Assembly (NCBI RefSeq): GCF_001427985.1
Contig: NZ_LMSA01000002.1
Location: 29,550 to 93,549, forward strand
DNA: 64,000 bases
Source of the DNA: Knoellia sp. Soil729
GTDB taxonomy: Bacteria > Actinomycetota > Actinomycetes > Actinomycetales > Dermatophilaceae
Direction: 5' to 3'
Shown: positions 1-64,000 of the stretch, piece after piece
How positions within the stretch are numbered: position 1 is the stretch's first letter
How the letters are laid out: every line of letters starts with the position of its first letter
Notes under the pieces: model-generated
Database searches by the model: none
Seen by the model: only the letters and a program-made list of their open reading frames with translations
Told to the model about the DNA's origin: nothing
Program-made: the position numbers and the translations under genes

Positions 1-680
1 CCCTGCCGTGCCTCCAGGTCCGCAAGCGGGTATGCCGTGTCGAGACCGAAGCCTCCCACCCGGGTCCGTCGCAGAGCAGTGAGGTGCCCGGCCGAGCCCA
101 GCGCCGTGCCGAGGTCACGGGCCAGGGCCCGGACGTAGGTGCCGGAGGAGACGGTGACGTCGACGTCCGCGTCGACGAGGTGCAGGCCCGCCTCCAGCGA
201 CCGGCGGACGCCACGGACCTCGAAGCGGGAGACGGTCACCGGACGGGCCGGGAGGTCGACGGACTCCCCCGCACGGGCCCGGTGGTAGGAGCGCTGGCCC
301 TTGACCTTGATGGCGCTGACCGAGCTGGGGACCTGCTGGATGTCACCGGTGAGGGTGCCCACGGCTGCGGCGATCGCCTCGTCGCTCACCCGCGCGGCAC
401 CGGGAGCGACGGTCACCTCGCCCTCCGCGTCATCGGTGAGCGTGGCCTGCCCGAGCCGGATCGTCGCCGTGTAGTCCTTGTCGCAGCCGACGAGGAAGGT
501 GAGCAGCCTGGTGGCGCGTCCGACGCCGAGGACGAGCACCCCCGTCGCCATCGGGTCGAGGGTGCCGGCGTGTCCGACCTTGCGGGTGTTGCACAGGCGC
601 CGGGCGCGGGCGACCACGTCGTGGCTGGTCCAGTCGGTCGGCTTGTCGACGATGAGCAGGCCGTCGACCGTCTCGCTCAC
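1..680 (-). CDS. truB: tRNA pseudouridine(55) synthase TruB (3' end outside window)
   Basis: Converts U55 of the tRNA T-loop to pseudouridine. The GTG start lies at 678-680 and overlaps the rbfA stop (GTGA), so the two genes are translationally coupled. About 226 residues are visible; the C-terminus runs off the left edge. The N-terminus reads VDGLLIVDKPTDWTSHDVV and is followed by GHAGTLDPMATGVL, the TruB catalytic motif with nucleophile Asp at about residue 42. The later segment with SSGTYVRALARDLG is also typical of the family. It is the last visible gene of the rbfA-truB unit. Confidence 0.95.
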   Translation of the reverse strand, partial: MSETVDGLLIVDKPTDWTSHDVVARARRLCNTRKVGHAGTLDPMATGVLVLGVGRATRLLTFLVGCDKDYTATIRLGQATLTDDAEGEVTVAPGAARVSDEAIAAAVGTLTGDIQQVPSSVSAIKVKGQRSYHRARAGESVDLPARPVTVSRFEVRGVRRSLEAGLHLVDADVDVTVSSGTYVRALARDLGTALGSAGHLTALRRTRVGGFGLDTAYPLADLEARQ

Positions 681-1195
681 GCGCGGTCGGTGCTGGGAGT
701 CCCGGTGACCGCGTCGGACGCTGGGGCCTGACGCACGTCGCCGGCGGGTGCCTGGTCGGCGTCGGCGTCGGCGTCCTCGTCGTCGTGGCGGTAGGGGTCG
801 GGGTCACCGGCGTGGGTGGCACCCGCGGCGGCGGCAGCGACCTGCGCGTCGCGCTCGCGTGCCTCCTGCAGGAGGACCTCGAGGTGCGCCGCCGTCTCGG
901 GGATGGCGTCGGCGATGAACTCGAGCGACGGTGTGAGGCGGATGCCGAGGTTCTTGCCGACGTGGCTGCGGAGCTTGCCGCGGTTCTCCTCGAGCAGGTA
1001 GGTCGTCTTGGCGCGCTGCGCGTCGTCACCGAACACGGTGTAGAACACCGACGCGTGCTGCAGGTCGTTGGTCACGCGCACGTCGGTGATGGTCACGAAA
1101 CCGAGGTCGGGGTCCTTGATGATCGAGCCCAGGCCTGCAGCGATGAGGGTCTTGATGCGGTCGGCGACCTTGCGGGCGCGGGCGGCGTCAGCCAC
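677..1195 (-). CDS. rbfA: 30S ribosome-binding factor RbfA
   Basis: Late 30S maturation factor that binds near 16S rRNA helix 1 and is needed at low temperature. I chose the GTG at 1193-1195 because GGAG sits six bases upstream; longer in-frame starts have no ribosome-binding site. The product is 172 residues. A KH-like RbfA core (RKVADRIKTLIA, then DPDLGFVTITDVRVTNDLQHA) covers about residues 6-115. It is followed by an Ala/Asp-rich tail of about 55 residues, longer than in E. coli RbfA. It overlaps truB downstream. A gene for a DUF4262 protein separates it from infB, its usual neighbour. Confidence 0.94.
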   Translation of the reverse strand: MADAARARKVADRIKTLIAAGLGSIIKDPDLGFVTITDVRVTNDLQHASVFYTVFGDDAQRAKTTYLLEENRGKLRSHVGKNLGIRLTPSLEFIADAIPETAAHLEVLLQEARERDAQVAAAAAGATHAGDPDPYRHDDEDADADADQAPAGDVRQAPASDAVTGTPSTDRA

Positions 1196-1372
1196 GACAA
1201 CTCCTTCACAGATGTTTGGTGGTGCCCGCACACACTATGCGCCCGGCGCGCAGGCGCAGAACCGGACAAGGGATCGACGTCGGAGTCGACATCGGGCGAC
1301 ACGCGTGCGCCATGACGCGGGCTGCGGCAGGTCGCCCGATCTCGACGTGATGGCGTGGGTGCCGCACGTCCA
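1196..1372. other. Intergenic region upstream of rbfA
   Basis: Between the DUF4262 stop and the rbfA start lie 177 bases. I see only the rbfA ribosome-binding site (GGAG near 1202-1205). No clear promoter boxes or hairpins were found, though transcription of rbfA-truB may begin here. Confidence 0.4.
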
Positions 1373-2287
1373 TCAGGGCACCGTCACCACGGTCCACTCG
1401 CAGTCGACGGTCGGGCGGTGTGCCTGCTCATCAAGGCCGAGCCCACTCAGGGCGCGCAGGCTCGGCGCCGAGCGGACCAGGTGGGCGAGATGCGCACGTC
1501 TCATCTCCTCGGTGGCGTGGCCCTCAGCGCCGCAGTGGAGGCTCCAGTCCTCGCTGTGCTCCCGGTCGGACTCCCGGGCCACGAACAGGACGGCTTCTCC
1601 GTGCTCCACGACGTGCACGCAGGAGAAAGCCAGCCGATCAGGTGGGACGGGGAAGTCCCACGAGGGGTCGACCGCCACGCCACCGGTGTGTGTGATCGGG
1701 TCGCGCCAGGACGGTGGCTGACGCTCGTCGAGGACAGGAGGCGCACCCGGCTGCCAGGCGAACAGGCCGGCGGTGCTGGGCCACACGATGGCCAGCGCTT
1801 CGGGCCGGCGTCGGTGGAACCACCCCGACCACGTCACCGTCTCGCGCAGCCCGTCGTCCGCGACGCCTTCCACGACGACCGGGACACCCGCCAGCACGTC
1901 CTCGAGGACATCGCCCGGGGCGAACCGTCGGCCAGCCATGACCTGGTGGGCCAGGTGGTTGAGCGCCTGGTGCATCACCGTGGGGTCCAGCCCGGACATG
2001 AGGAGCTCTGGGTGACCGCACCGGTGGCCGAGGCCAACGGTGTACGCGAAGGCTGGAACGGCAGTGCCGTGGTGGTCCTGCGCAGGGTGGTGATGGGCGT
2101 GGTCACCGTGCTCGCAACCGGCCTCGTCGGAGACCAGACTCACCTGCCAAACGTGACGCAGGATCGTGTCGATGGTCCGGCGATCCTCGACGTCGTAGGA
2201 CCCGGCCGGCCGGCAGATGTGGCAGTCACACCCCGCGGACGCCGGCAGCGGACCCATCCACTCGGGCTCAGCTCCTCGCTCTGACAT
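1373..2287 (-). CDS. DUF4262 domain protein
   Basis: A 304-residue protein of unknown function. The ATG at 2285-2287 is preceded by GGGGAGCGC. The DUF4262 features are visible: a Cys-rich start (CDCHIC, about residues 18-23), the AYTVGLGHRCGHPELLMSGL segment, and a region with HQALNHLAHQVMAG. A His-rich stretch (HGDHAHHHPAQDHH) lies near residues 65-80. It is placed between infB and rbfA, which normally adjoin, and the hairpin behind infB isolates it from that gene. Its own promoter should lie in 2288-2388. DUF4262 proteins have no established activity, so I give no function. Confidence 0.8.
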   Translation of the reverse strand: MSERGAEPEWMGPLPASAGCDCHICRPAGSYDVEDRRTIDTILRHVWQVSLVSDEAGCEHGDHAHHHPAQDHHGTAVPAFAYTVGLGHRCGHPELLMSGLDPTVMHQALNHLAHQVMAGRRFAPGDVLEDVLAGVPVVVEGVADDGLRETVTWSGWFHRRRPEALAIVWPSTAGLFAWQPGAPPVLDERQPPSWRDPITHTGGVAVDPSWDFPVPPDRLAFSCVHVVEHGEAVLFVARESDREHSEDWSLHCGAEGHATEEMRRAHLAHLVRSAPSLRALSGLGLDEQAHRPTVDCEWTVVTVP

Positions 2288-2388: not shown

Positions 2389-2421
2389 CGGCCGGCATAC
2401 CGAAAGTCGGTATGCCGGCCG
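2389..2421 (-). terminator. Hairpin behind infB built from an inverted CGGCATAC pair
   Basis: A perfect 15-bp stem (2389-2403 and 2407-2421) with a 3-base loop lies 21 bases past the infB stop. Each arm contains the window's over-represented octamer (CGGCATAC at 2393-2400, GTATGCCG at 2410-2417). There is no U-tract, as is common for GC-rich actinobacterial hairpins. Its position suggests termination of the nusA-infB transcript before the DUF4262 gene. Confidence 0.75.
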
Positions 2422-5443: not shown

Positions 5444-5848
5444 TCATTGCTGAGTTCTCATCGGGTGCTCATCAGCGTCAAACCCGCTCTCGGTTCCCTT
5501 GGGACGGTTGGTTGTCTGCTCGTGGGTGGTGATCCACTCCGCCACGGCGGCGGTGTCCAGCGGTGCGCTGACTCGCAGCGCACGCCCGAACGCCCGACGT
5601 CGGACGGCGAGGGCAAAACAGTCCTCGGTGGGATGCAGCCAAGCGCCGCGCCCCGGAAGACATCGTCGGAGGTCTGGGACAAGGTCCCCGTGACCTCCGG
5701 CGACCACTCGCAGGAGTGCCGACCGGCTATCCGTTGCTCTGCATCCCACACAGGTGCGCACGGGCTCCACCACAGACGATGTATGCCGTGTGCCCGCCTC
5801 AGCGTGCAACGCCCGAGCCCGGGTTCCAGTCCGGTCGGTCCCCTCCAC
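5444..5848 (-). CDS. ylxR: YlxR/DUF448 family RNA-binding protein
   Basis: Small basic protein always found between nusA and infB; B. subtilis YlxR is a nucleoid-associated regulator that also binds RNase P RNA. The core VRTCVGCRATDSRSALLRVV and the GRGAWLHPTEDCFALAVRRR segment are diagnostic, with the two Cys of CVGC visible. The longest frame starts with GTG at 5846-5848, 8 bases after nusA. A GTG at 5768-5770, just before EPVRTCVGC, would give a family-sized protein of 108 residues and is a serious alternative. Neither start has a convincing ribosome-binding site. A CGGCATAC octamer lies between the two candidate starts. Confidence 0.85.
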   Translation of the reverse strand: MEGTDRTGTRARALHAEAGTRHTSSVVEPVRTCVGCRATDSRSALLRVVAGGHGDLVPDLRRCLPGRGAWLHPTEDCFALAVRRRAFGRALRVSAPLDTAAVAEWITTHEQTTNRPKGTESGFDADEHPMRTQQ

Positions 5849-7034: not shown

Positions 7035-7565
7035 TCAGCTCTCCTGATCTTGTGGTGCGTGGTCCGGGCGCGAGAACTCGACCTGCACGTCGGCACGCTC
7101 GATCGCGGCATACGCAAAGGTCTCGTTGCGGGCGGGGTCCTTCTTCTTGGCCGGGACCTCGAGGGTGAGGTCGTCGGTGCCGGCGCGCACGACGCGCCCG
7201 GTGACGGGCTCGGCCCCCTGGGGAGCGAGCACGACCAGGCGGCCCACGTTGCGGCGGAAGTGTGAGGCGTTCGTGAGTGGCCGGGAGACGCCGGGCGAGG
7301 TGACCTCGAGGGTGTAGGGCTGCTCGCCGAGCACGTCGGACTCGTCGAGAGCGTCGCTCACTGTGCGGGTCGCGGCCGCGATCTCGTCGAGGGAGAGGGA
7401 GGGCAGGGTCTGCGTGACGTCACCGGTGGCGTCCAGGGCGCGGTCCACGACGACCTTGACGACGCGACGACGTCCGGCGGGGGTGACGACGACGTCCTCG
7501 AGGACGACTCCTGAGCCGTCCAACGCACCAGCGATGAGCTGCTGCACCTCGGTGTCCCGGGTCAT
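7035..7565 (-). CDS. rimP: Ribosome maturation factor RimP
   Basis: 30S maturation factor acting early in assembly of the S12/S5 region. ATG at 7563-7565 follows GGGAGACCG. The 176-residue product has the RimP N-terminal alpha/beta domain ([20 protein letters not shown]) and the diagnostic [19 protein letters not shown] and [14 protein letters not shown] motifs, followed by the SH3-like C-terminal domain. It heads the rimP-nusA-ylxR-infB unit. The 102-base gap to the divergent lipoprotein gene (7566-7667) should hold the operon promoter; I could not identify boxes in it. Confidence 0.95.
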
Positions 7566-10301: not shown

Positions 10302-11979
10302 GATCGGCCTCGGTGTCGAAGGGCAGCCGGATGACGAAGCGCGCCCCGGGCGGCCCCGTCACGGCGAGGGTGCCGTGGAGCCGGTCGACGGTCTGCGACA
10401 CGAGGGCGAGGCCGATGCCACGCCGGCCGGCGCTGCCCTGCCCCTTGGTGCTGAACCCACGCCGGGCGACGAGCTCCACCGTGTCGGCCGGCAGCCCCGG
10501 CCCGGAGTCGGCCACCTCGAGCACCACCGACCGGATCTCCCCCTCGCTCGCCACGGAGATGTCGACGTCCACCCGGCGCTCGGCCTTCGAGGCACCGCCC
10601 GTCACGGCGTCGAAGGCGTTGTCGATGAGGTTGCCGACGATCGTGACGATGTCACGCACCGGCACCGCTCCCGGCGGCCAGTCGGCGTCCCCCGAGATCC
10701 GCAGGTCGATGCCGCGCTCACTGGCCTGGGCGCTCTTGCCGACGAGCAGGGCGGCGAGCACCGGCTCGGTTCCCGCACCCACGACCTGGTCAGCCAGCCT
10801 CTGCGTCACTGCCAGCTCGTCCGTGGCGAACTCGAGGGCACGTTCGGTGTGGCCGAGCTCGATGAGGGAGACGATCGTGTGGATCCGGTTGGCCGACTCG
10901 TGCGCCTGGGACCGCAGCGCCTCGGTGACTCCTCGGGCAGAGTCGAGCTCTCCGGTCAGGTGCTCGAGGTCGGTGCGGTCGCGCAGCGTGGCCACGGTCC
11001 CGAGCCGTCGGCCCTCCCACGTGGCAGGGGCCGTGCTGAGCACGAGGATCCGGTCCTCGGTGAGGCGCAGCTCGTCCTCGCGGTGTGCCCCGTCGGACAG
11101 GGCGGTGGTCAGGGAGGGGCTGAGCCCGAGCTCGGCCAGCGGCCGGCCGGTGGCGTCGTCCGGGAGGCCGAGGAGGCGGATGGCCTCGTCGTTGGCGAGC
11201 TGTAGCCGACCCTCCTGGTCCACGAGGATCAGGCCCTCGGTGACGGCGTGCAGGACGGCGTCGTAGTACTCGTACATCTCCCGCAGCTGCCGCTCCCCCA
11301 GACCCAGGGTCTGGCGACGTGTGCGCCGGGCGACGAGGGCGGCGCCCAGGCCGGAGAGCAGGGCGGCCGCCGCGCCCGCGGCCAGCAGTACGGGCAGCTG
11401 GTTGCTCACGGCCCTGGACAGGGCCGTGCGCGTGATGCCGACCGCCACCAGGCCGACCACCGACCCGGTGTCCGACTCGACGGGCACCACCACCCGGCGC
11501 GACGGGCCCAAGGTCCCGGTGTAGTCCTCGACCACCTCACCGCCTCTCACGGCGTTCTCGATGTGCCCGATGAACCGCTCGCCGACCCGCGCGGGGTCCG
11601 GGTGGGAGTAGCGCACGCCTTGGGTGTTCATCACGACGACGAAGTCGGTCGCGGTCTCCTTGCGGACCTCCTCGGCGAAGTCCTGCACTGCTGGGGACGG
11701 GGTGCCCGACGACAGCGCCTGCACGACCTCAGGAGTCGAGGCGACGGTGCGGGCCACGGACATGGCGCGCGAGGTGGCCTCCTGGGTCTGCGACCGGCGA
11801 GCCTGGACGTAGGCCGCCACGAGCCCGACCGCGACGACGAGCAGCGCGACCGCGACCTGGAGCGCGAAGGTCTGGGTGGCGACGCTCCAGCGTCTCGGTG
11901 ACGCGCGCACGCGAGCCGGGCTCACCGGCATACGGAGTGCGAGGGCCGTCGGGGCACCCGCCCGACGTCGCCCCGGCAC
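10294..11979 (-). CDS. CitA/DcuS-type sensor histidine kinase
   Basis: Membrane sensor kinase of 561 residues. It has a first membrane segment (about 40-60), an extracytoplasmic PDC sensor domain (about 60-185, with MNTQGVRYSHPDPARVGE as in DcuS/CitA), a second membrane segment (about 190-212) and a PAS domain. The SPOB-type dimerisation helix carries the phosphoaccepting His in SQAHESANRIHTI, and an HATPase domain follows (NLIDNAFDAV, DSGPGL, GIGLALV). The long frame starts with GTG at 11977-11979. An ATG at 11929-11931, inside a CGGCATAC octamer, is an alternative start. Ligand is probably a C4-dicarboxylate or citrate, judged from the adjacent carrier. Confidence 0.92.
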   Translation of the reverse strand: MPGRRRAGAPTALALRMPVSPARVRASPRRWSVATQTFALQVAVALLVVAVGLVAAYVQARRSQTQEATSRAMSVARTVASTPEVVQALSSGTPSPAVQDFAEEVRKETATDFVVVMNTQGVRYSHPDPARVGERFIGHIENAVRGGEVVEDYTGTLGPSRRVVVPVESDTGSVVGLVAVGITRTALSRAVSNQLPVLLAAGAAAALLSGLGAALVARRTRRQTLGLGERQLREMYEYYDAVLHAVTEGLILVDQEGRLQLANDEAIRLLGLPDDATGRPLAELGLSPSLTTALSDGAHREDELRLTEDRILVLSTAPATWEGRRLGTVATLRDRTDLEHLTGELDSARGVTEALRSQAHESANRIHTIVSLIELGHTERALEFATDELAVTQRLADQVVGAGTEPVLAALLVGKSAQASERGIDLRISGDADWPPGAVPVRDIVTIVGNLIDNAFDAVTGGASKAERRVDVDISVASEGEIRSVVLEVADSGPGLPADTVELVARRGFSTKGQGSAGRRGIGLALVSQTVDRLHGTLAVTGPPGARFVIRLPFDTEADHG

Positions 11980-13457: not shown

Positions 13458-13519
13458 CTGCACGGCCCGCGTCCGGGGTGAGTCGGTCACGCGGGCCGCG
13501 GACGGCATACGGTGACGTC

Positions 13520-15507
<1,988 letters not shown>

Positions 15508-41897: not shown

Positions 41898-41990
41898 GGG
41901 GTCCCGTCTCCTTCGGTATGCCGCGCCGGAAAGTGGTGCGTCAGGGTTCAGTCTGTCAAACAATGCCGGCCGGCCGAGGTGCTGCCTGCG

Positions 41991-44853: not shown

Positions 44854-45207
44854 GCCGGTGTTCTCCTTGTGCTGGGTTCTCAGTTGCGTCGGCGGAGCAC
44901 GGGTCGTGCACTGCCTGCCTGGCGACTCGACGGACCACGCCGTATGCCGTGTGCTCCAGTGGAGCTGGCACAAGGACTGTCGTGGTGCGCCCCGCTTCGT
45001 GGTGATCCAGTCAGCGGTCGTGAGTCGCGCGAATTTGGATCCCGGGTGCGAGCACACGAGAACCAGCGCTCATCGTACGCGCGGGGACGGCATACCGAGA
45101 AATCCGCCGCCGCTCCCCTCGCCTCGTGTGCCCCACGCAGACGTATGTGCCTGCCTCAGGCACACGAGGCGAACGTCCGGCTCATGTGCCGCGTAGCCTC
45201 ACCTCTC
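44854..45207. promoter_or_regulatory. 354-base divergent region between rpsB and an MFS gene
   Basis: The longest non-coding stretch of the window. It contains the rpsB ribosome-binding site, two over-represented octamers (44942-44949 and 45088-45095), and the 13-bp inverted repeat at 45120-45171. It also has a GGCATACSGAGAAATC segment at 45089-45104 that recurs upstream of rplS. Promoters for both directions must lie here, but I could not assign boxes. No RNA gene was recognised. Confidence 0.5.
45120..45171. repeat. Inverted repeat before the MFS gene
   Basis: Perfect 13-base arms (45120-45132, CGCCTCGTGTGCC, and 45159-45171) flank a 26-base centre, ending 36 bases before the exporter start. 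It could be an operator or part of a leader hairpin. Confidence 0.55.
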
Positions 45208-51377: not shown

Positions 51378-52532
51378 TCACCATCGCGACTTGGGGACCT
51401 TGCGCCACCGCTCCCCCACCCGCTCGACGATGCCGAGCATCGAGAGCCGTCCCAGGGTGCTGAGCAGCGTGGCGGAGTCCAGGGCGGTCAGCTCCTGCAG
51501 TCGGCCGAGGTCTGCCGGGACGCGGACGGGCACCGCGGACCACACGCTGCGGTCACGGTCGCCGAGCTCGGACTCCAGGGTGGCCACCGCCCGTGCTGGT
51601 CCCACTGCGTCCATGCCGAGCCGGCCCATGAGGTCCAGGACCTCCGCGACGTCGGTCACCAGGGTGGCGTCGGTCTCGCGGAGGAGCTTGTGGCACCCGG
51701 CGGACTGCACCGAGGTGACGGGTCCCGGGACGGCCGCGACGTGACGCACGAGCTTGCGTGCCTCCTTGGCCGTGTTGAGCGACCCTGACCTCAGCCCGGC
51801 CTCCACCACCACCGTGCCCACGCTCATGGCCGCGATGAGCCGGTTGCGGGCGATGAACCTCTGTCGGTAGGGAGCCCAGCCCGGGGGGAGCTCGCTGACG
51901 ACCGCTCCCTCCGCGGCGATCTCACGCAGCAGGCCCTCGTGCGCCTGCGGGTAGGCCCGGTCGAGACCCCTGGCCAGCACGGCGATCGTCGGCCCGCCTC
52001 CGGCGAGCGCCCCGCGGTGGGCTGCCGCATCGATGCCGAACGCTGCTCCGGACACGACCGTGACGCCGCGCTGGACGAGGCCCTCTCCCAGGTCGGCAGC
52101 GACCCTCAGCCCGTAGGCCGTCGCCGCGCGGGAGCCCACCACCGCGATGCTTCCCTCGGCGATGCCCAGATCGGCGGAACCGCGCACGTAGAGGCACATC
52201 GGCGGGCACGCGAGCTGGTCGAGGCCGAGCGGCCACTCCTCGTCGCCGGGGATGACCACTCTCACCTGCAGCCGGTCGAGGGCATGACGGGCCTGGTCGA
52301 TGTCGAGTGCCGCGACGCGCTGGTCGTAGCGCCCGTCCGGCACCAGCGTCCCGCCCAGCAGGCGGTCCATCGACTCGACGGCTCCGTGCCGACCGATCCA
52401 GTCACGCACCGACGCGGTCTCGGGCTCGGCGATCCGGCTCCAGGCCATCCGCGCCCACCGCTCCTGCGCGAGGGCCGCGACTCCGCGGGGCCCCGACTCC
52501 TCCGGAGCTTCCGGAGCTGGTTTTGCGGTCAT
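51378..52532 (-). CDS. dprA: DNA-processing protein DprA
   Basis: Loads RecA on incoming single-stranded DNA during natural transformation. The 384-residue product has a helical N-terminus and the Rossmann-like domain with IAVVGSRAATAYGLRVAADL, VVSGAAFGIDAAAHRGAL and VEAGLRSGSLNTAKEA. A C-terminal winged-helix region is present (about 315-380). ATG overlaps the comM stop (ATGA). The presence of dprA and comM is compatible with competence but not proof. Confidence 0.94.
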   Translation of the reverse strand: MTAKPAPEAPEESGPRGVAALAQERWARMAWSRIAEPETASVRDWIGRHGAVESMDRLLGGTLVPDGRYDQRVAALDIDQARHALDRLQVRVVIPGDEEWPLGLDQLACPPMCLYVRGSADLGIAEGSIAVVGSRAATAYGLRVAADLGEGLVQRGVTVVSGAAFGIDAAAHRGALAGGGPTIAVLARGLDRAYPQAHEGLLREIAAEGAVVSELPPGWAPYRQRFIARNRLIAAMSVGTVVVEAGLRSGSLNTAKEARKLVRHVAAVPGPVTSVQSAGCHKLLRETDATLVTDVAEVLDLMGRLGMDAVGPARAVATLESELGDRDRSVWSAVPVRVPADLGRLQELTALDSATLLSTLGRLSMLGIVERVGERWRKVPKSRW

Positions 52533-54073
52533 GCTGCAGCCCTCCCCTGGCTGCGCAGCGTGAAGGCCAGCCCGACGTCCTCGGCCGTGGGTGAGACCCG
52601 GCCGAACAGGTCGGCTGCCGACCACGCGAGCCGCACGGTCCGGTCGTAGCCACGCAGGGTGAGCTGGCCCAGGTCGAGCGCCCGGTCGATGGAGGCCGTG
52701 GCCCCGCTCGGCAGCCGCCAGGGCCGGCGCCGCAGGGCGTGCCCCGGGACGCGGGAGTTCGTCGTCCAGCCATGCCTGGACCACCGCTCCCGCTGGACAG
52801 CCCGGGCGCGCAGGACGCGCTCGAGCACCACCTCGCTGGACTCCCCCACCTCGTCGCCGAACGCAGCCCGCGACACCGGCGGCACGACCACCTGGATGTC
52901 GACCCGGTCGATGAGCGGCCCTGAGAGCTTGGCCTGGTAGCTGCGGAGCTCGACCGCACTGCACATGCAGTCGATGCCCTTGCCCCACGCGCGTCCGCAG
53001 GGACAGGGGTTCGTCGCGAGGACCAGCTGGAAGCGCGCCGGGTAACGGACGAGCTGCTTGGCCCGTGCGATCGTCACCTCCCCCGACTCCAACGGTTGGC
53101 GCAGCTGCTGCAGCACGGAGGTCTTGAACTCCCCGGCCTCGTCCAGGAACAGGACGCCGCAGTGCGCCCGGGAGATCGCTCCGGGCAGCACGACGCCCGA
53201 GCCACCGCCGGTGATCGAGGCCATGGACGCGCTGTGGTGCGGCGCCACGAAGGGCGGAGTGAGGTCGAGCTCGCTCGCCCGGATCTCGTCCCCGGTGAGC
53301 GAACGGATCGCATGGGTCTGCAGGGCCTGCTCCCGGGAGAGCGGAGGCAGGATCGTCACCAGGCGCTCCGCCAACATGGTCTTACCGACCCCGGGTGGGC
53401 CGTTCATCAGCAGGTGGTGCCCACCGACCGCCGCCATCTCGACGGCCAGCCGTGCCTCAGGCTGACCGACGACGTCGGCGAGGTCGCCCCGACGCGCCGT
53501 CGCCTCGGCCTGCTCGCTCACCGCACCCGCGACCGGCAACGGGTCGACCCCACCACGGGCGGCATACCAGTGCACCAGCGTGGCCAGGGTCGGCGCGCAG
53601 TGCACCGTAACGCCGTCGACGAGCTGCGCCTCGGCGACGTTCTCCGGTGGGACGACCACGTGCCGCACGCCGGCCCGTGCCGCCGCCAGGACAGCGGGCA
53701 GGATGCCCCGCACGCCCCGCACCCGTCCGTCGAGACCCAGCTCGCCCAGGTGCACGACCTGCGCGATGCGACGTGCGTCGACGGCCCCCGACGCTGCCAG
53801 GACCGCCAGGGCGATCGCGATGTCGAAGCCGGTGCCCTGCTTGGGGATCGAGGCCGGCGAGAGGTTGACCGTGATGCGTTGAGGCGGCAGGGGGCAACCA
53901 CTGGTCGCGGCAGCGGACCGGACGCGGTCGGGCGCCTGGCCGCACGCCTTGTCGGGCAGGCCGGTGACGCTGAAGTTCGGCAGCTGTGAGGAGATGTGGG
54001 CCTCGACGTCGACGAGGCGGCCCTCGAGCCCGCTGAGGGCCACGCAGAGCGTCCGCCCGAGCTTGGCGCTCAT
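52529..54073 (-). CDS. comM: Competence-associated Mg-chelatase-like ATPase ComM (YifB)
   Basis: AAA+ helicase that helps integrate divergent DNA by branch migration in Vibrio. The 514-residue product has the N-terminal ChlI-like domain (NFSVTGLPDKACGQAPDRVRSA), Walker A GPPGVGKTM (about 225-233), Walker B VLFLDEAGEF and the zinc-ribbon-like Cys cluster CPCGRAWGKGIDCMC. It ends in a Mg_chelatase C-terminal domain. ATG overlaps the yraN stop (ATGA). Confidence 0.94.
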   Translation of the reverse strand: MSAKLGRTLCVALSGLEGRLVDVEAHISSQLPNFSVTGLPDKACGQAPDRVRSAAATSGCPLPPQRITVNLSPASIPKQGTGFDIAIALAVLAASGAVDARRIAQVVHLGELGLDGRVRGVRGILPAVLAAARAGVRHVVVPPENVAEAQLVDGVTVHCAPTLATLVHWYAARGGVDPLPVAGAVSEQAEATARRGDLADVVGQPEARLAVEMAAVGGHHLLMNGPPGVGKTMLAERLVTILPPLSREQALQTHAIRSLTGDEIRASELDLTPPFVAPHHSASMASITGGGSGVVLPGAISRAHCGVLFLDEAGEFKTSVLQQLRQPLESGEVTIARAKQLVRYPARFQLVLATNPCPCGRAWGKGIDCMCSAVELRSYQAKLSGPLIDRVDIQVVVPPVSRAAFGDEVGESSEVVLERVLRARAVQRERWSRHGWTTNSRVPGHALRRRPWRLPSGATASIDRALDLGQLTLRGYDRTVRLAWSAADLFGRVSPTAEDVGLAFTLRSQGRAAA

Positions 54074-54852: not shown

Positions 54853-55627
54853 GCGTCACCGCTCCGTCGTCGTGGGCGTCGGAGGTCACCGACACCAGTG
54901 GTGGTGGCATCGCCGAGGCCGCGTCCTGCTCGGCGAAGCCTCCATCATCGTCCATCGTTCCCGGGAGCCGCCACGAGCGTCGGTGCAGCACCGTCGGGCC
55001 GAAGGCTCGCAGGGCCTCGATGTGCTCGGGTGCGGAGTAGCCCTTGTTGAGGTCCCACCGGTATGCCGTGTGCTCCGGTGCCAGCTCGACCATGATCCTG
55101 TCGCGCTCCACCTTGGCCAGGACGCTGGCCGACGCCACCGAGGAGCACCTGAGGTCGGCCTTGATCATGGTCGTCACGGGCGGGGTGTGGACCTCGCTCG
55201 AGCCGAACGCCAGCAGTCCGACCTCGTCGGGCACGGAGAGCCAGTCGTGGTTGCCGTCGAGGATCACGAGGTCGGGGACGACGTCGAGCGCCGCCAGCGC
55301 GCGACGGCCGGCGAGTCGCAGGGCGGCGATGATGCCGATCGCGTCGATCTCGGCCGGCGACGCATGACCCACCGCGTGCGCGAAGGCCCACCGACGGATC
55401 CGCGGGACCATGACCTCACGGGCGTGCGGCTGCAGCAGCTTCGAGTCGCGCACGCCCTGGGGTGCGGACCGGCAGGACTCATCGATGACGACGACACCCA
55501 CCGACACCGGCCCGGCCAGTGCACCCCGCCCGACCTCGTCCATCCCGGCGAGGAGGCGGTAGCCGTCGCGCTGGAGGGCGCGCTCGACGCGCAGGCTGGG
55601 CTTGCGGGAACGGGGTGCGGGGGGCAT
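54842..55627 (-). CDS. rnhB: Ribonuclease HII
   Basis: Removes single ribonucleotides and RNA from RNA-DNA hybrids. The 261-residue product has [21 protein letters not shown] (catalytic Asp and Glu), [24 protein letters not shown] and [25 protein letters not shown] at 55625-55627 was chosen over an upstream TTG. The C-terminal about 50 residues extend beyond the catalytic fold and are Asp/Ala-rich. Confidence 0.94.
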
Positions 55628-56561: not shown

Positions 56562-57245
56562 TCAGGGCTGGGTGGTGGTCGGTGTGGCAGGGGAACCCAT
56601 CTCGCCGAGCGGCCAGATGCGCGTGACGACGGTCCCGATGAGGGCGTCCTCGGGGACGGTCCCGTCGGTGCTGAGCGACCCGGCCCCCACGTGGGTACGC
56701 GAGTCCATCGCGTCGGAGGCACTGTCACTGAGGAGGAAGTATCGACCCGTCGGCACCCGAATCCGAAACGGCGCCGCATTGTCGGCGAGCCGCGGCCCCA
56801 CCGACGTGCCATTGACCGCGACGTGCCCCCCGTCGCAGCAGACCACCTCGTCGCCCTCGCCGGCGACGACGCGAGCCAGCACCGAGCGCTCGCCGAGGTC
56901 GATGCCCAGGGCCCCGGCGGCCGCACCCAGGGTCCGTCCGATGACGCCGTCGTCGGTGTGCGTCGAACGGTCCGGCCCGGGCCACGCGTGGGTGACGTCC
57001 GCGACGACGACGTCCCCCACGGAAGGCGTGCCGACCTTGGCGATGAGGACACGCTGGCCGGCTTCGAAGGTGGGCGACATCGAGTCGCTCGCCACGGCAT
57101 ACGGCTGCAGGAGGAACGCCCGCACGAGCATGACCGCCAGGACACCGGCACCGAGCATCACCGGAAGGCGGTACGCATGACTCGACCCGGCCCCTGCCGT
57201 GGTGGCGGGGACCGGGTCGGTGTCGTGTGGGGCCGGCGAGGTCAT
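56562..57245 (-). CDS. Signal peptidase I paralogue lacking the canonical Lys
   Basis: A 227-residue S26-family protein with one N-terminal membrane helix (about 27-47). It has the nucleophile box ASDSMSPTFEAGQRVLI and box E SASDAMDSRTHVG. The box D segment reads VLARVVAGEGD instead of hKRVvGlPGD, so the general-base Lys is replaced by Ala. It may be inactive, use another base, or assist LepB. ATG at 57243-57245. It sits between rplS and lepB, where many actinobacteria have one lepB. Confidence 0.88.
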   Translation of the reverse strand: MTSPAPHDTDPVPATTAGAGSSHAYRLPVMLGAGVLAVMLVRAFLLQPYAVASDSMSPTFEAGQRVLIAKVGTPSVGDVVVADVTHAWPGPDRSTHTDDGVIGRTLGAAAGALGIDLGERSVLARVVAGEGDEVVCCDGGHVAVNGTSVGPRLADNAAPFRIRVPTGRYFLLSDSASDAMDSRTHVGAGSLSTDGTVPEDALIGTVVTRIWPLGEMGSPATPTTTQP

Positions 57246-57660: not shown

Positions 57661-57841
57661 GACTGGTTCGCTTTCTCGTGCGGTGCCACAGGTCACCCAC
57701 AGGTGCTGGTGCTGCAATGAATGGTGGTGCGACGTCGTGCCTCATGCGGAAGCTGCCGGGCCGGGGCCCGCACGCTCCGCACTCCCCCTGTGGCAGGGGC
57801 GTGAATCGACGGACGCAAGGAGCAAGTTTGCCAGAGCACCC

Positions 57842-57857
57842 GGCATACGGAGAAATC
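57842..57857. promoter_or_regulatory. Element shared with the rpsB upstream region
   Basis: GGCATACGGAGAAATC here and GGCATACCGAGAAATC at 45089-45104 differ at one base. Both lie in the regions upstream of ribosomal protein genes (rplS and rpsB) and each begins with the over-represented octamer. The meaning is unknown. Confidence 0.4.
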
Positions 57858-58461: not shown

Positions 58462-58525
58462 GGCTCCCAGCATGCCAAGGCGCGCCGACAGCCGCTCGGT
58501 CGGCGCGCGGCATACGGTGTGCCCC

Positions 58526-59284
58526 GTGAGCATCGATCCCGGGTGGCCGGTCGGCCTGGCGTGCGTTGCGCTCCTCGCACTGACGTTGGTCATGTATGCC
58601 GTGGGGCGGCTCCCGCACGCCGGCTCCACCCTCGTCGCGGCCGGGCGGGCGGTCCTCCAGCTCGGGGTGGCGGCCCTGGTCATCGCCGCCGTGGCCCAGA
58701 ACCTGCTGCTCTCGGTGCTGCTGCTCTGCTTCATGTTCGCCGTCGCGGTGTTCACGACGACGCGACGGGTCGAGGCCGAGCCGGCATGGCCGTGGGCGAC
58801 GGCGGCCATGCTCGCCGGGCTGCTGCCGGTCGTGGCGATCATCCTGGGAACGCGGACCGTGCCGCTCGAGGGCATCGCCCTCATCCCCGTCGTCGGCATC
58901 GTCCTGGGCAACACGATGAACGGCCACACGCTGGTGGGGCGTCGCGCGTTCGCGGCGCTGCGTGAGGAGACGGCCCAGTACGACGCGGGGTTGTCCATCG
59001 GGCTGACGAGGGCACAGTCCATCGACGAGATCGTGCACCGGCGCCTGCCCGAGGCCCTCATCCCGGGGCTCGACCAGGTCCGGACCGCTGGCGTCGTGAC
59101 GCTTCCCGGAGCCTTCATCGGCGTGCTGCTCGGTGGCGGCTCGCCCGCCCAGGCCGCCGCTGCCCAGGTGCTCGTGCTACTGGGGATCATGGCCGCCCAG
59201 ACCACGACCGCAGTGGTGGCGGGCCGACTCATCCGCTCAGCGCGGCTGCTGCCCGAGGACCTGCACGCCCGCCTGCGCCCCTAG
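58526..59284 (+). CDS. FetB-like ABC exporter permease (UPF0014)
   Basis: A 252-residue inner-membrane protein with seven or so helices of the FetB/YbbM family. It includes IPVVGIVLGNTMNGHTLVGRRA and VVTLPGAFIGVLLGGGSPAQAAAAQVLVLLGIMAAQTTTAVVAG. E. coli FetB with ATPase FetA exports iron and improves oxidative-stress resistance. No FetA-like ATPase gene is adjacent, so it is an orphan permease here. GTG 58526-58528; an octamer CGGCATAC lies 10 bases upstream. Confidence 0.85.
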   Translation: MSIDPGWPVGLACVALLALTLVMYAVGRLPHAGSTLVAAGRAVLQLGVAALVIAAVAQNLLLSVLLLCFMFAVAVFTTTRRVEAEPAWPWATAAMLAGLLPVVAIILGTRTVPLEGIALIPVVGIVLGNTMNGHTLVGRRAFAALREETAQYDAGLSIGLTRAQSIDEIVHRRLPEALIPGLDQVRTAGVVTLPGAFIGVLLGGGSPAQAAAAQVLVLLGIMAAQTTTAVVAGRLIRSARLLPEDLHARLRP

Positions 59285-59407: not shown

Positions 59408-60598
59408 TCATTCCGGCGCGCCGGTCGCCGCCCTGCGCTTGGTGAGGTCGACCGTTCCGGGGAACTCACCCTCGCCGGGGCGGATGCGGTAGCCGGCCTT
59501 CTTGTACATGCGCAGGTTCTCCGTGCTCTTCGCACCGGTGTTGAGCCAGTAGGTGCGCACGTCCTCGGAGGCCAGCGACTCGGCATACGCGAGCAGCTCC
59601 CGTCCGAGCCCACGTCCCTGGAGATAGGGCGCGATCATGAGGCGGCCGATCTGCCACGTCGCCTCCTGCGTGGGGTGGCGCCGGACCCGCAGTGAGGCGA
59701 GCAGCTGCCCGTCCTTGCGCCAGACCCGGGTGTCCCATTCCTGTATGCCGTCGCGCACCGTCTCGAGGTCCTCCTCGCCTGCGCCGAACATGCCGTAACG
59801 CGCGAACTCCGGCGCCCAGCAGGCGCGCGTGAGCACCTGGAGGTCCGGGGCGTCCGCCGGCGTCGCCACCCGCTCCTCGAGCTGGCTCAACGCCGACGCC
59901 GCAGCGGTCGGTGGCAGGAGGTCGGGGCGGCGCTCGGCGGTGCGCTGGACCCGCTGCTCGTGACGCCACGCCGCGATGGCCCGGTGGTTGCCGCTGAGGA
60001 GGACCTCGGGCACGGCGCGCCCCTCCCACTCGGCAGGCTTGGTGTAGACGGGGTACTCGAGGAGGCCGTCCTCGTGCGACTCCTCGACGAGGGACTCGGC
60101 GTTGCCGAGAACTCCCGGCAGGAGGCGTGCCACGGCCTCGACCATGGCGAGGACCGCGACCTCGCCACCGTTGAGGACATAGTCGCCGAGGGACAGGACA
60201 CGCACGGGCATCCGCTCGCCGGCCCACTCGTAGACGCGCTCGTCGATGCCCTCGTAGCGCCCGCAGGCGAAGGCGAGCCAGGGTTCGTCGGCGAGCTCGC
60301 GCGCGACCTGCTGCGTGAAGGGCTCGCCACCGGGACCAGGGATGACGAGAGTCGGCACGGCCGCACTGCGCTGCGCGGCAACGTGGTCCAGCGCCTCTGC
60401 CCAGGGGCCCGGCTTCATGACCATGCCCGCTCCCCCGCCGTAGGGGCTGTCGTCGACCGTGCGGTGCCTGTCGTGCGCGAAGTCCCGCAGGTCGTGCACG
60501 TGAAGCTCGAGCAGACCCTCGCGGCGGGCCTTGCCGATGAGGGAGAGGTCGAGGGGCGCGAGGTACTCGGGGAAGATCGTGACGACGTCGAGTCTCAT
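59408..60598 (-). CDS. trmD: tRNA (guanine(37)-N1)-methyltransferase TrmD fused to a GNAT domain
   Basis: Residues 1-235 are TrmD, which methylates G37 next to the anticodon. They show [56 protein letters not shown] and the trefoil-knot AdoMet site. A linker and an acetyltransferase domain follow (about 245-390), with [25 protein letters not shown] (acetyl-CoA loop) and [18 protein letters not shown]. The stop codon comes only after the GNAT part. Typical TrmD is about 240 residues, so this is a real domain addition. Confidence 0.93.
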
Positions 60599-62245: not shown

Positions 62246-62278
62246 CGGCATACCGGGAAGAGCCGGCGGCGTATGCCG
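62246..62278. repeat. Inverted pair of over-represented octamers upstream of rpsP
   Basis: CGGCATAC at 62246-62253 and GTATGCCG at 62271-62278 form an inverted pair 17 bases apart; the first lies in its own CCCGG...CCGGG palindrome. The second is also the left end of the family 1 repeat. Confidence 0.6.
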
Positions 62279-62306: not shown

Positions 62307-62337
62307 ACCCTTGCGAGTGTGCGTCACCGCGAGGACG

Positions 62338-62781: not shown

Positions 62782-63707
62782 TCCGCGACCGCCTCCCTGA
62801 CCTCCCCGCGAGCCTGTTCGCGCCTCGCGGGCAAGGCGCTCGTGTCGAGCGCAAGACGGATCTGGCTGGCGAGGAAGTTGGTCTCGGCGCACAGCACCAT
62901 GGCGAAGTCCTCGACGCCGGCGACCACTCCCGGACCGGCCGCGGCGCGGTAGGCCCTCGTGGTCACGGCAACGGCGCCCTCGTCGACGTCGTCGCCGAGC
63001 ACGTGCCACTGCACGAGCGTCTTGGCCAGCTCGCGCGAGGGCTGCAGTGGCCCGCAGTCCTCCCAGTCGAGGGCACGCAGGCTGCCATCCGGGCCGAGGA
63101 CCACGTTGTCGGGATGCAGGTCGCAGTGGCCGAGGACGAAGGGACCTGCAGGCCGGCCGGCCCGCCGCACGACCTCGGCGTATGCCGTGAGGTCACCCAG
63201 TCGGGCCGCGAGCGCTCCGTGCCACGCCTGCCCGTGTGACCTCTGCACGAGCTCGGCCCAGGCCTGCGCCGAAGGCATCGTGGAGTGCCAGTCCCTCGGC
63301 GGCTCGACCGTCGTCGGACCGGCGCGGTGTAGCTGTGCGACAAGGGTGCCCAGCTCGCCGGCCACCTCGGAGGTACGGTCGGTGACCGGCGTCCCGGCGA
63401 CCCAGTGGCTCACGCGCGCGCTGCCACCGCCCAGCTCGGCGGGGACGTCCCTGACGAGGTGGCCGTCCGAGGTGGCGACGTGCGTGGGCACCTCCACGCC
63501 CTGCATGGCGAGCTGGTGCAGGAGCGCAGCCTCCCGCCGAACGGCCGCCGCGTCGAGCGCCCGGAAGGGCCGCTTGACCGCGAAGTCCCGCCCCGCGACC
63601 GACAGGTGCCAAACGTCGCCGTCGGCGCCACGTCCCCCGACCCGCGACGTGATCGTGCCTGTCCCCAAGCCGAACTCGGACCGGACCCACTCAGCGAAGG
63701 CGTCCAC
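62724..63707 (-). CDS. Aminoglycoside-phosphotransferase-like kinase-fold protein
   Basis: A 327-residue APH-family protein. The N-lobe has FAVKRPFRALDAAAVRREAALLHQL (ATP Lys and helix C Glu), the catalytic loop FVLGHCDLHPDNVVL, and the metal-binding LRALDWEDCGPLQPSREL. Substrates of chromosomal APH-like proteins vary (choline, homoserine, antibiotics) and none can be named here. GTG at 63705-63707; a CGGCATAC octamer sits 1 base upstream. Confidence 0.82.
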   Translation of the reverse strand: MDAFAEWVRSEFGLGTGTITSRVGGRGADGDVWHLSVAGRDFAVKRPFRALDAAAVRREAALLHQLAMQGVEVPTHVATSDGHLVRDVPAELGGGSARVSHWVAGTPVTDRTSEVAGELGTLVAQLHRAGPTTVEPPRDWHSTMPSAQAWAELVQRSHGQAWHGALAARLGDLTAYAEVVRRAGRPAGPFVLGHCDLHPDNVVLGPDGSLRALDWEDCGPLQPSRELAKTLVQWHVLGDDVDEGAVAVTTRAYRAAAGPGVVAGVEDFAMVLCAETNFLASQIRLALDTSALPARREQARGEVREAVADYLPTMAALARVLRAASRA

Positions 63708-63725
63708 GCGGCATACCTCGTCCTG

Positions 63726-64000
63726 TCACCAAGGACTGGGTTCGTAGTCCTTGACGAAGGCTCCGTAGAGGTCCTCGCCGGCCTCGCCTCGCACGATCGG
63801 GTCATAGACGCGGGCGGCGCCGTCGACGAGGTCGAGCGGTGCGTGCCACCCCTCGGCGGCGATGCGCAGCTTCTCGTGATGGGGACGCTCGTCGGTGATC
63901 CAGCCGGTGTCGACCGCGGTCATGAGGATGCGGTCGGTCTCGAACATCTCCCCCGAGCTGGTGCGGGTGAGCATGTTGAGCGCGGCCTTGGCCATGTTGG
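63726..64000 (-). CDS. Short-chain dehydrogenase/reductase, C-terminal part (5' end outside window)
   Basis: About 91 residues are visible. They start NMAKAALNMLTRTSS, the helix after the catalytic Tyr-x-x-x-Lys whose Lys is in NMAKAAL, then DTGWITDERPH, the usual PGxxxT region with changes. The protein ends VKDYEPSPW. The N-terminal NAD(P)-binding half lies beyond 64000. Substrate unknown. Confidence 0.78.
   Translation of the reverse strand, partial: NMAKAALNMLTRTSSGEMFETDRILMTAVDTGWITDERPHHEKLRIAAEGWHAPLDLVDGAARVYDPIVRGEAGEDLYGAFVKDYEPSPW

What the first reader, a model, noticed from the sequence alone, without database searches (positions are those of the whole stretch)
1..64000. An octamer (CGGCATAC / GTATGCCG) about 20-fold over-represented, with uptake-sequence-like behaviour
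By hand I count about 48 copies in 64 kb (26 as CGGCATAC, 22 as GTATGCCG). With about 71 % G+C the random expectation is near 2 on both strands together. Essentially every GGCATAC heptamer seen is preceded by C, so the unit is at least 8 bases. About 16 copies lie in the roughly 3.9 kb of intergenic DNA, e.g. 2393, 2410, 13503, 24855, 29684, 39057, 41916, 42921, 42947, 44942, 45088, 57841, 58508, 62246, 62271 and 63709. In genes it is read as Tyr-Ala (TAT GCC) or Ala-Tyr (GCA TAC) with codons rare here, and near 37213 it even gives an ATA Ile codon. There is no strand skew, which argues against Chi- or KOPS-like polar signals. Four inverted pairs form hairpins, two behind infB and tsf, as Neisseria and Haemophilus uptake sequences do. 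dprA and comM are in the window. I know of no described uptake sequence in actinobacteria; alternatives are a nucleoid-protein site, a methylation motif, or a seed of palindromic repeats.
Basis: partly seen in the sequence, partly recalled or inferred. Interest (0 to 1): 0.88.

Follow-up and report, generated by a model that had tools for sequence, protein, structure and literature searches.

The report
Uptake-sequence-like word in soil actinobacteria
A family of soil bacteria has the same eight-letter DNA word written thousands of times through its genomes, with clade-specific spelling variants, in the way that Neisseria and Haemophilus mark DNA for sexual uptake; I found no earlier description of such marks in Gram-positive bacteria.

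Summary
CGGCATAC/GTATGCCG occurs 48 times in the window (0.7 expected) and 2138 times in the 3.6-Mb Knoellia-type genome (reversed control 89). It is non-polar, concentrated between genes, paired as terminator-like hairpins, and held in place across Knoellia species. In its family, 112 of 186 genomes carry the word or its one-letter dialect CGGCATCC; no sampled genome outside comes near. The dialect sits on three branches of a 61-genome tree, two genomes hold both words, and one hairpin switched words on both arms. Other clades relax or change positions 1, 2 or 3, and Janibacter carries an unrelated word, CGAAGGGGG, with the same anatomy.

Best reading: an uptake-sequence-like self mark, spread by biased natural transformation and read by a sequence-specific receptor. 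Competence genes are present, but in motif-free relatives too. It was not found; the one candidate tested family-wide failed. Uptake was not tested. Ten open-access searches listed no actinobacterial uptake sequence.

The parts
30..37 (-). CGGCATAC copy, coding
2393..2400 (+). CGGCATAC copy, intergenic; arm of the hairpin 3' of infB
   Evidence: hairpin z -9.05
2410..2417 (-). CGGCATAC copy, intergenic; other arm of the infB hairpin
5781..5788 (-). CGGCATAC copy, intergenic
7106..7113 (+). CGGCATAC copy, coding
11926..11933 (+). CGGCATAC copy, intergenic
12671..12678 (-). CGGCATAC copy, coding
13503..13510 (+). CGGCATAC copy, intergenic
15429..15436 (+). CGGCATAC copy, coding
16391..16398 (-). 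CGGCATAC copy, coding
18444..18451 (+). CGGCATAC copy, coding
21180..21187 (+). CGGCATAC copy, coding
21310..21317 (-). CGGCATAC copy, coding
24104..24111 (+). CGGCATAC copy, coding
24855..24862 (-). CGGCATAC copy, intergenic
25790..25797 (+). CGGCATAC copy, coding
29373..29380 (+). CGGCATAC copy, coding
29684..29691 (-). CGGCATAC copy, intergenic
30846..30853 (+). CGGCATAC copy, coding
31090..31097 (+). CGGCATAC copy, coding
33374..33381 (-). CGGCATAC copy, coding; weak inverted pair with 33418
   Evidence: z -2.0
33418..33425 (+). CGGCATAC copy, coding; weak inverted pair with 33374
34888..34895 (-). CGGCATAC copy, coding
36143..36150 (+). CGGCATAC copy, coding
36869..36876 (-). CGGCATAC copy, probably coding (gap of my gene caller); identical in 2 of 7 other Knoellia that could be compared
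37082..37089 (-). CGGCATAC copy, probably coding; identical in 6 of 8 other Knoellia
37232..37239 (+). CGGCATAC copy, probably coding; identical in 6 of 8 other Knoellia
39057..39064 (+). CGGCATAC copy, intergenic; identical in 6 of 6 other Knoellia that could be compared
41916..41923 (-). CGGCATAC copy, intergenic between pyrH and frr; identical in 8 of 8 other Knoellia
42921..42928 (-). CGGCATAC copy, arm of the tsf-pyrH hairpin (16-bp stem); 8 of 8 other Knoellia; CGGCATCC in clade g119
42947..42954 (+). CGGCATAC copy, other arm of the tsf-pyrH hairpin; switches together with 42921
44942..44949 (-). CGGCATAC copy, gene call doubtful here (reader: intergenic)
45088..45095 (+). CGGCATAC copy, gene call doubtful here (reader: intergenic)
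47215..47222 (+). CGGCATAC copy, coding; identical in 8 of 8 other Knoellia
47885..47892 (-). CGGCATAC copy, coding; identical in 8 of 8 other Knoellia
48365..48372 (-). CGGCATAC copy, coding; identical in 7 of 7 other Knoellia that could be compared
53560..53567 (+). CGGCATAC copy, inside comM
55061..55068 (-). CGGCATAC copy, coding
57095..57102 (+). CGGCATAC copy, coding
57841..57848 (+). CGGCATAC copy, intergenic
58508..58515 (+). CGGCATAC copy, intergenic
58594..58601 (-). CGGCATAC copy, coding
59581..59588 (+). CGGCATAC copy, coding
59743..59750 (-). CGGCATAC copy, coding
62246..62253 (+). CGGCATAC copy, intergenic; weak inverted pair with 62271
   Evidence: z -1.68
62271..62278 (-). CGGCATAC copy, intergenic; weak inverted pair with 62246
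63180..63187 (-). CGGCATAC copy, coding
63709..63716 (+). CGGCATAC copy, intergenic
51378..52448 (-). dprA (recombination mediator of transformation); its part in this system is inferred
   Evidence: Pfam PF02481, E 1.2e-69
52529..54073 (-). comM / Mg-chelatase-like; its part in this system is inferred
   Evidence: Pfam PF01078 and PF13541

Best explanation
CGGCATAC is the DNA uptake word of this actinobacterial family. During natural competence a sequence-specific receptor in the envelope binds duplex DNA that carries the word, and the DNA is passed to ComEA and ComEC, protected by DprA and recombined with the help of ComM. Kin DNA that carries the word is recombined more often, so copies spread by biased transmission. 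They settle at permissive places (spacers, synonymous positions, terminators), are restored when mutated, and stay rare in newly acquired DNA. When the receptor changes its preferred base, the same drive rewrites the genome in the new spelling, which gives dialects. Shown here: abundance, non-polarity, intergenic and terminator placement, positional conservation, family-limited distribution, dialects, and the presence of ComEA, ComEC, DprA, ComM and Tad loci in this genome. Inferred: competence itself, receptor binding, drive, and depletion from foreign DNA.
For: Abundance: 2138 copies in 3.6 Mb, control 89; 105 of 186 family genomes with 394-4724 copies and 7 more with the CGGCATCC dialect, 2 of these holding both words. 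Restricted to the family: 0 of 362 other genomes of the order exceed 180 and 0 of 293 others of the phylum sample exceed 386, that one in 7.5 Mb. No strand bias over 21 stretches. Intergenic 64 of 254 against 25.5 expected. Adjacent pairs within 60 bp: 33 inverted, 1 direct, in the loci of 39 motif-bearing genomes. Conservation at the same place in Knoellia: mean 0.88 over ten sites against 0.28 in matched controls, 0 of 5000 draws as high. Sites sit in permissive surroundings. Cost paid: 87 of 330 TAT and 14 of 38 ATA codons lie inside the word. Dialect on three tree branches; tsf-pyrH hairpin switched on both arms with every cell of the stem still paired. Position 1, 2 or 3 relaxed or changed in other clades; a different word with the same anatomy in Janibacter. 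Flank code differs by genus and is constant within several: T at -1 is 1-3% in 9 Knoellia, 25-27% in 5 Flexivirga-type genomes, though 11-42% within g11. ComEC in 180 of 186; ComEA and ComEC in this genome.
Against: No uptake experiment exists here. ComEC is in all 65 motif-free genomes (the 6 of 186 without a hit are incomplete or fragmented motif-bearing or weak ones) and Tad-type ATPases are in 27 of 27 tested, motif-bearing or not, so machinery does not predict the word. No reader was found. The one candidate followed across the family, a TadF-like pilin, is absent from motif-rich G224, G499 and G542 and marginal in G122. Knoellia shows no excess of one-mismatch copies, unlike Haemophilus and Neisseria (PMC1939737, passages). 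Depletion from foreign DNA rests on one island and one phage, and the phage had 2 copies where 0.65 are expected. Under-dispersion holds only if the island stretch is left out.
Confidence: 0.7

Rival explanations
1. Binding site of a chromosome-organising or nucleoid-associated protein, kept by selection for even spacing along the chromosome.
For: Uniform density: counts per 20 kb vary less than Poisson in 19 of 20 stretches (variance/mean 0.30, p 0.002; 0.67 and p 0.14 when the island stretch is kept). Non-polar and family-wide. No uptake data.
Against: Thousands of sites carry a one-letter variant on three branches, two genomes hold both words, and Janibacter has an unrelated word of the same anatomy. 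Without transmission bias, selection on each single site must do this. Placement in terminator hairpins with both arms switching together is not predicted.
Confidence: 0.12
2. Chi-like self mark for a helicase-nuclease (AdnAB or AddAB type) that spares and recombines DNA carrying the word.
For: Octamer length and a self-marking role fit. RecC-free genera carry the word more often: 21 of 28 motif genera lack RecC, 8 of 20 others lack it (48 genera with a genome at least 90% complete, weak genera counted as others, kinship not corrected for).
Against: RecC is absent from all 9 Knoellia and present in 89 of 186 genomes, motif-bearing and motif-free alike, so RecBCD is not the general reader. No local strand bias. 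Intergenic enrichment and inverted terminator pairs are not Chi features (recalled). AdnAB and AddAB were not searched for.
Confidence: 0.08
3. Recognition site of a DNA methyltransferase or defence system that tells self from foreign, over-represented so that every fragment is marked.
For: Self-marking explains abundance and non-polarity. Methylation-guided uptake is known in Campylobacter (recalled).
Against: Restriction sites are usually avoided, not 30-fold enriched (recalled). Clade-specific preferences outside the octamer (almost no T at -1, T favoured at +8 in Knoellia) and the lack of neighbour words fit a binding protein better. No modification data are held and no methyltransferase was searched for.
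Confidence: 0.07
4. No function: mutation bias, codon-pair bias, a dispersed repeat or Illumina adapter carry-over (the adapter holds CGGCATAC).
For: A P7 adapter primer quoted in an abstract listed contains the octamer.
Against: A 15-base piece of the adapter occurs once in all held sequence. Sites are conserved for place among nine species and force the rare codons TAT and ATA. Flanks are mixed. Reversed control 24-fold lower.
Confidence: 0.01

Closest known systems
DNA uptake sequence (DUS) of Neisseriaceae, read by minor pilin ComP
   Same: Short word with thousands of copies, inverted pairs at terminators, conserved in permissive places, dialects that differ by single bases, one genome with two dialects at once (PMC3630211, PMC2397512: passages read).
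   Different: Monoderm actinobacteria; type IVa pilins found in 3 of 70 genomes; no excess of one-mismatch copies in Knoellia; uptake untested; Janibacter word unrelated in sequence.
Uptake signal sequence (USS) of Pasteurellaceae (AAGTGCGGT, ACAAGCGGT; PMC3630211 passage)
   Same: Abundance, two spellings, inverted terminator pairs (PMC5217627 passage), base preference downstream of the core (recalled for Haemophilus).
   Different: Different word, phylum and envelope; Haemophilus shows over-represented mismatched forms (PMC1939737, passages).
Flp/Tad-pilus-dependent transformation of Micrococcus luteus
   Same: Actinobacterium with comEA, comEC and Tad clusters holding TadA, TadE and TadF (PMC6370729, passages; PMC4322843, passages and abstract start). 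The Knoellia locus L239 has similar gene content.
   Different: No uptake word appears for M. luteus in the passages read; CGGCATAC is not enriched in the 19 other families sampled in the order, which carry no names, so whether Micrococcus is among them is unknown.
HIP1 of cyanobacteria
   Same: Octamer with thousands of copies, lineage-limited (recalled).
   Different: HIP1 is a palindrome (recalled); this word is not.
Chi and KOPS
   Same: Octamers that guide recombination or translocation (recalled).
   Different: Both are polar (recalled); this word is not, and RecC is absent in Knoellia.

Membership tests
DUS/USS uptake sequences | Non-palindromic word of 8-12 bases, strongly over-represented genome-wide | tested here: met
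   2138 vs reversed control 89; 288 vs 8.8 expected, 33-fold, in 524 kb
DUS/USS uptake sequences | No replication polarity | tested here: met
   130 vs 124 over 21 stretches, chi2 9.2 on 21 df
DUS/USS uptake sequences | Intergenic enrichment and inverted pairs as terminators | tested here: met
   64 of 254 vs 25.5; 33 inverted vs 1 direct pair; hairpin covariation; termination itself not tested
DUS/USS uptake sequences | More conserved than surroundings, in permissive places | tested here: met
   0.88 vs 0.28; flank identity below 23/30 in 36% vs 22% of comparisons
DUS/USS uptake sequences | Rare in recently acquired DNA | tested here: inconclusive
   One catabolic island with 2 sites in 20 kb; phage TJE1 2 in 49 kb, 0.65 expected
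DUS/USS uptake sequences | Dialects that follow phylogeny | tested here: met
   CGGCATCC on three branches; CCGCATAC, CGNCATAC and NGGCATAC clades
DUS/USS uptake sequences | Excess of one-mismatch copies | tested here: not met
   Knoellia own 335 vs 345 expected, other Knoellia 133 vs 113; 147 vs 93 in the Flexivirga group, where position 3 is relaxed
DUS/USS uptake sequences | The word raises DNA uptake and transformation | not testable with these tools
   needs a transformation assay
ComP-type (type IVa minor pilin) reading system | Type IVa pilins with N-methylation motif | tested here: not met
   PF07963 in 3 of 70 family genomes at E 0.1, 2 over the cut-off; none in G000
Natural transformation machinery | ComEA, ComEC, DprA, ComM | tested here: met
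   in this genome; ComEC in 180 of 186
Chi / RecBCD | Polar word and a RecC reader | tested here: not met
HIP1 | Palindrome | tested here: not met
   CGGCATAC is not its own reverse complement

The most novel reading that the evidence does not exclude
A whole Gram-positive family practises sequence-marked DNA uptake with a receptor unrelated to the known type IV minor pilins, probably on a Tad pilus. Its base preference has changed repeatedly (positions 1, 2, 3, 7, the flank, and in Janibacter the entire word), and each time biased transformation rewrote thousands of genomic sites, leaving intermediates with two words at once.
Probability: 0.5. Interest if true: 0.95.

Novelty: new variant of a known kind. 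Interest (0 to 1): 0.9.

Why it matters
Genome-wide uptake words are described for two Gram-negative families (PMC3630211, passages), and whether they arise by drive or by selection is an old question. An independent case in Gram-positive soil bacteria, with more than 100 genomes at hand, clades that keep, switch, relax or lack the word, and genomes caught with two words, would make receptor-word co-evolution directly testable. It would also point to an unknown class of sequence-specific DNA receptor, imply frequent homologous exchange in this family, and give a practical handle for transforming it (add the word to donor DNA).

Tried and rejected
Chi/KOPS polarity: no local strand bias. RecBCD as reader: RecC absent in all 9 Knoellia. 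ComEC presence as predictor: in 180 of 186, among them all 65 motif-free genomes. comEA-comEC neighbourhood compared by eye in 20 genomes: in 18 the caller found comEC and I saw no gene special to motif genomes; in G402 and G426 it failed. My ComEA search pattern found 2 of 20, so ComEA was not compared; ComEA of this genome was confirmed later. Tad locus of class 2 in 19 genomes (10 motif-bearing, 9 not; a twentieth was too short): no gene family shared by the motif genomes and missing from the others. I thought that G462, motif-free beside motif-rich sisters, had lost the minor pilins of the class 3 Tad locus. The family search showed a TadF-like copy elsewhere in G462, and absence from motif-rich G224, G499 and G542 with only a marginal hit in G122: rejected. 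TadF-like absence is still commoner in motif-free genomes (10 of 54 vs 4 of 89, p 0.009; genomes at least 95% complete, weak ones left out, G122 counted as absent, kinship not corrected for). Two literature searches for the letters themselves held 2606 and 643 papers; the 20 rows shown of each were unrelated by title and abstract start. Illumina adapter carry-over: rejected. My gene caller is home-made and failed on L156-L157 and on the g111 loci (noncoding 0.45), so intergenic figures outside Knoellia and Janibacter are rough. On checking I mended one count: T at -1 in the 400-kb sample is 1 of 206, not 0.

Full report
OBSERVATION. The window holds exactly 48 copies of CGGCATAC/GTATGCCG (26 and 22), where dinucleotide-preserving shuffles give 0.70 on average and at most 4. 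Against an order-2 Markov model it is the most over-represented octamer of the window (48 vs 1.16). The window is 29550-93549 of contig 2 of a 3,605,744-base genome, which has 1083 + 1055 = 2138 copies; the word read backwards has 89. NCBI family Intrasporangiaceae; the GTDB name Dermatophilaceae for the wider family is recalled. The tools give these genomes no names, so names below rest on contig-length identity: g1 Knoellia (G458), g15 Terrabacter (G539), g118 Flexivirga (G419), g5 Janibacter melonis (G066), g111 Austwickia (G403). g8 is an unnamed genus that is sister to g5 in the tree.

ANATOMY. In 464 kb of this genome (20 stretches plus the window) there are 254 sites. 64 are intergenic where 25.5 are expected, a density of 13.8 per 10 kb against 4.5 in genes (home-made gene caller, 3 sites straddle edges). 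Of 187 coding sites, 87 read TAT-GCC and 63 GCA-TAC. The word is costly to the code: 87 of all 330 TAT codons and 14 of all 38 ATA codons in the sample lie inside it. It has no polarity: over 21 stretches strand use is 130 vs 124 and the stretches scatter no more than chance (chi2 9.2 on 21 df). Density is even: variance/mean 0.30 over 19 of 20 stretches (p 0.002), but 0.67 (p 0.14) if the twentieth is kept. That one, L128 with 2 sites in 20 kb, is a catabolic island with a transposase-like gene, recognised from the translations and excluded after the fact. The word is sharp in Knoellia: its 24 one-mismatch neighbours occur 335 times against 345 expected. Only CGGCATAG is modestly high there (21 vs 6.1). 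Flanks extend it: T is nearly forbidden at -1 (1 of 206 in the 400-kb sample, 2 of 48 in the window; 50 of 2138 genome-wide) and at +1 (5 of 206), A is favoured at -1 (94 of 206), and T is favoured at +8 (80 of 206; background 15%) and +11 (68 of 206). These preferences appear in coding and intergenic sites alike, so they are not codon effects.

HAIRPINS. Of 34 adjacent pairs within 60 bp in the loci of 39 motif-bearing genomes, 33 are inverted and 1 direct. Behind infB (2393/2410) and tsf (42921/42947) the pairs fold with z -9.1 and -7.2; the pairs at 33374 and 62246 are weak. The tsf-pyrH hairpin has a 16-bp stem, of which the word forms eight pairs. In 11 aligned genomes every cell is a standard pair, and four pairs change on both sides (12 such cells vs 3.8 in shuffles). 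Gene names tsf, pyrH, frr and infB are recognised from the translations, not from a family scan; dprA and comM are by Pfam. That these hairpins end transcription is inferred.

CONSERVATION. In an alignment of about 20 kb around pyrH from nine Knoellia genomes, whose aligned letters agree with this genome at 70-79%, the octamer is identical in 420 of 562 ordered comparisons, against 175 expected for octamers matched for G+C and flank identity. By site, ten usable sites of this genome have a mean conserved fraction of 0.88 against 0.28 (sd 0.10) in matched controls, with 0 of 5000 draws as high. One of the ten, 36869, is kept in 2 of 7 only, and many word positions of the other genomes are found in one genome alone (11 of 25 well-aligned columns). 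The sites lie in less conserved surroundings than average (flank identity below 23 of 30 in 36% of comparisons, 22% overall). This is what was reported for neisserial DUS (PMC2397512, passages).

DISTRIBUTION. All 186 held genomes of the family were counted (tallied). 105 have 394-4724 copies of CGGCATAC, 5 have the dialect CGGCATCC (3619-4480 copies), 2 have both words (1217 + 2195 and 1189 + 2099), 9 are weak (153-341) and 65 have 7-149. The background of CGGCATCC in genomes without the dialect is some hundreds, up to about 1300. Of 362 other genomes of the order none exceeds 180 copies of CGGCATAC; of 293 others in a phylum sample none exceeds 386, that one in 7.5 Mb with control 176. The highest ratio outside the family that I noticed is G816, 161 in 1.8 Mb against 30.

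DIALECTS. A five-protein tree of 61 genomes (1341 columns, FastTree, midpoint root, supports not examined) puts CGGCATCC on three branches: g114, g146 beside Terrabacter, and g119. In g119 two genomes hold both words and two are almost pure CGGCATCC. The genus g10, which falls beside the pure ones, has no more than 35 CGGCATAC and keeps a residue of CGGCATCC (59 vs 15 expected in 160 kb). At the tsf-pyrH hairpin both arms read CGGCATAC in nine Knoellia, G432 and G529, both read CGGCATCC in four g119 genomes, and both are decayed in G235 and G395. Searching held loci of other clades, I found more spellings. g117 (two genomes) has CCGCATAC: 11 in 28 kb, 0.6 expected. The Flexivirga group accepts any base at position 3 (G 88, C 30, T 25, A 20 in 100 kb; 25-, 11-, 15- and 9.5-fold); g3 shows G, T and C. 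g11 accepts C, G and A at position 1 (13-, 13- and 7-fold). Janibacter-type genomes (g5 and g8), with 7-41 copies of CGGCATAC each, carry CGAAGGGGG: 117 in 240 kb against 7.2 expected, 60 on one strand, 45 of 117 between genes where 9-12% of the DNA is non-coding, 10 inverted against 4 direct close pairs, some of them perfect hairpins, and sharp except at positions 8 and 9. Named loci of J. terrae, J. melonis and J. limosus have 9, 15 and 8 copies in 21 kb each. The -1 flank is steady within several genera: T 1.0-3.0% in nine Knoellia, 2-4% in three Terrabacter, 25-27% in five Flexivirga-type genomes, 23-32% in four g3 genomes, but 11-42% in six g11 genomes (69 genomes). No replacement word emerged in the held loci of g4, g6, g14, g120, G462, G490, G400 or g130; several of these samples are only about 20-40 kb.

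MACHINERY. ComEC is in 180 of 186 genomes, including all 65 motif-free ones; the six without a hit are drafts of 300 or more contigs (five) or 75% complete (one). In this genome ComEA (SLBB and helix-hairpin-helix) and ComEC are adjacent, and dprA and comM lie in the window. Type IVa prepilin signatures were found in 3 of 70 genomes and not in this one. Tad/T2SSE-type ATPases are in 27 of 27. One Tad locus of this genome, L239, has tadA-B-C, a small Flp-like ORF without Pfam match, two TadE-like genes (one of which I call TadF-like) and a TadE/G-like gene, a content like that described for the Micrococcus luteus competence pilus (PMC6370729, passages). None of this separates motif-bearing from motif-free genomes. 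The TadF-like gene has a hit in 166 of 186 genomes, and is missing or marginal in four nearly complete motif-rich genomes.

MECHANISM. The features fit an uptake word. An extracellular receptor favours DNA with the word, recombination of kin fragments spreads and restores it, and a change of receptor preference is followed by genome-wide rewriting. The strongest argument over a chromosomal binding site is the turnover. Three branches carry some thousands of sites with the same one-letter change, another lineage uses an unrelated word with the same placement, and intermediates hold two words, as in the neisserial relative S. muelleri (PMC3630211, passages). A site-by-site selective regime would have to do this without transmission bias. 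What is shown is pattern. Competence, binding and biased uptake are inferred, and the missing excess of mismatched copies is a real difference from Haemophilus and Neisseria (PMC1939737, passages).

COMPARISON AND NOVELTY. It works like DUS/USS. It is not filed under the ComP-type system, because type IVa pilins were tested and not found in most genomes. PMC3630211 (passages) calls the requirement for uptake words unique to Neisseria and Pasteurellaceae. My ten searches of an open-access library, which lacks most subscription papers, listed no actinobacterial case. I therefore rate it a new variant of a known kind, with a reader that must differ. Papers were seen as passages found by term (PMC1939737, PMC2346458, PMC2397512, PMC3630211, PMC4322843, PMC5217627, PMC6370729, PMC12236230) or as search listings only; none was read whole.

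Noticed in passing
L128 (G000 contig 5, 10001-30000): Aromatic-catabolism-like island with a transposase-like gene; only 2 copies of the word in 20 kb against about 11 elsewhere.
   Followed up: partly
186 family genomes: RecC (PF04257) is patchy: 89 of 186. At genus level 21 of 28 motif genera lack it while 12 of 20 other genera have it; kinship not corrected for.
   Followed up: partly
L098-L100, L158, L218, L236 (G136, g7): CGTACGTC 57 vs 6.1 expected and CGTACGCC 60 vs 9.3 in 111 kb, mostly coding; CGTACGCC/CGGCGTAC-type excess also in L051, L056 and L077.
   Followed up: partly
L139, L219, L239, L109-L111 (G000): ACTGATTG/CAATCAGT 12 vs 0.2 expected, 9 intergenic; possibly a local repeat array.
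   Followed up: no
L067 (Glycomyces algeriensis): ACCCACGA, ACGACCCA and CCCACGAC 27-30 copies in 21 kb where about 1 is expected.
   Followed up: no
L092-L094, L153, L213, L231 (Janibacter melonis): GGGGGGGG/CCCCCCCC: 61 octamer windows vs 9 expected, all intergenic.
   Followed up: no
G400: Labelled genus g3 by the tool but clusters with the Janibacter clade in the five-protein tree; its lack of CGGCATAC fits the tree.
   Followed up: partly
G462 vs G463, G464 (g133): Same genus: 19 copies against 3681 and 1062; the TadF-like gene of G462 lies about 40 kb from its tadABC.
   Followed up: partly
G464 C2:210147-221974; G546 C233, C236: Rare type IVa-like prepilins in the family; in G464 within about 11 kb of a strong T2SSE-type ATPase (449.7 bits).
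   Followed up: no
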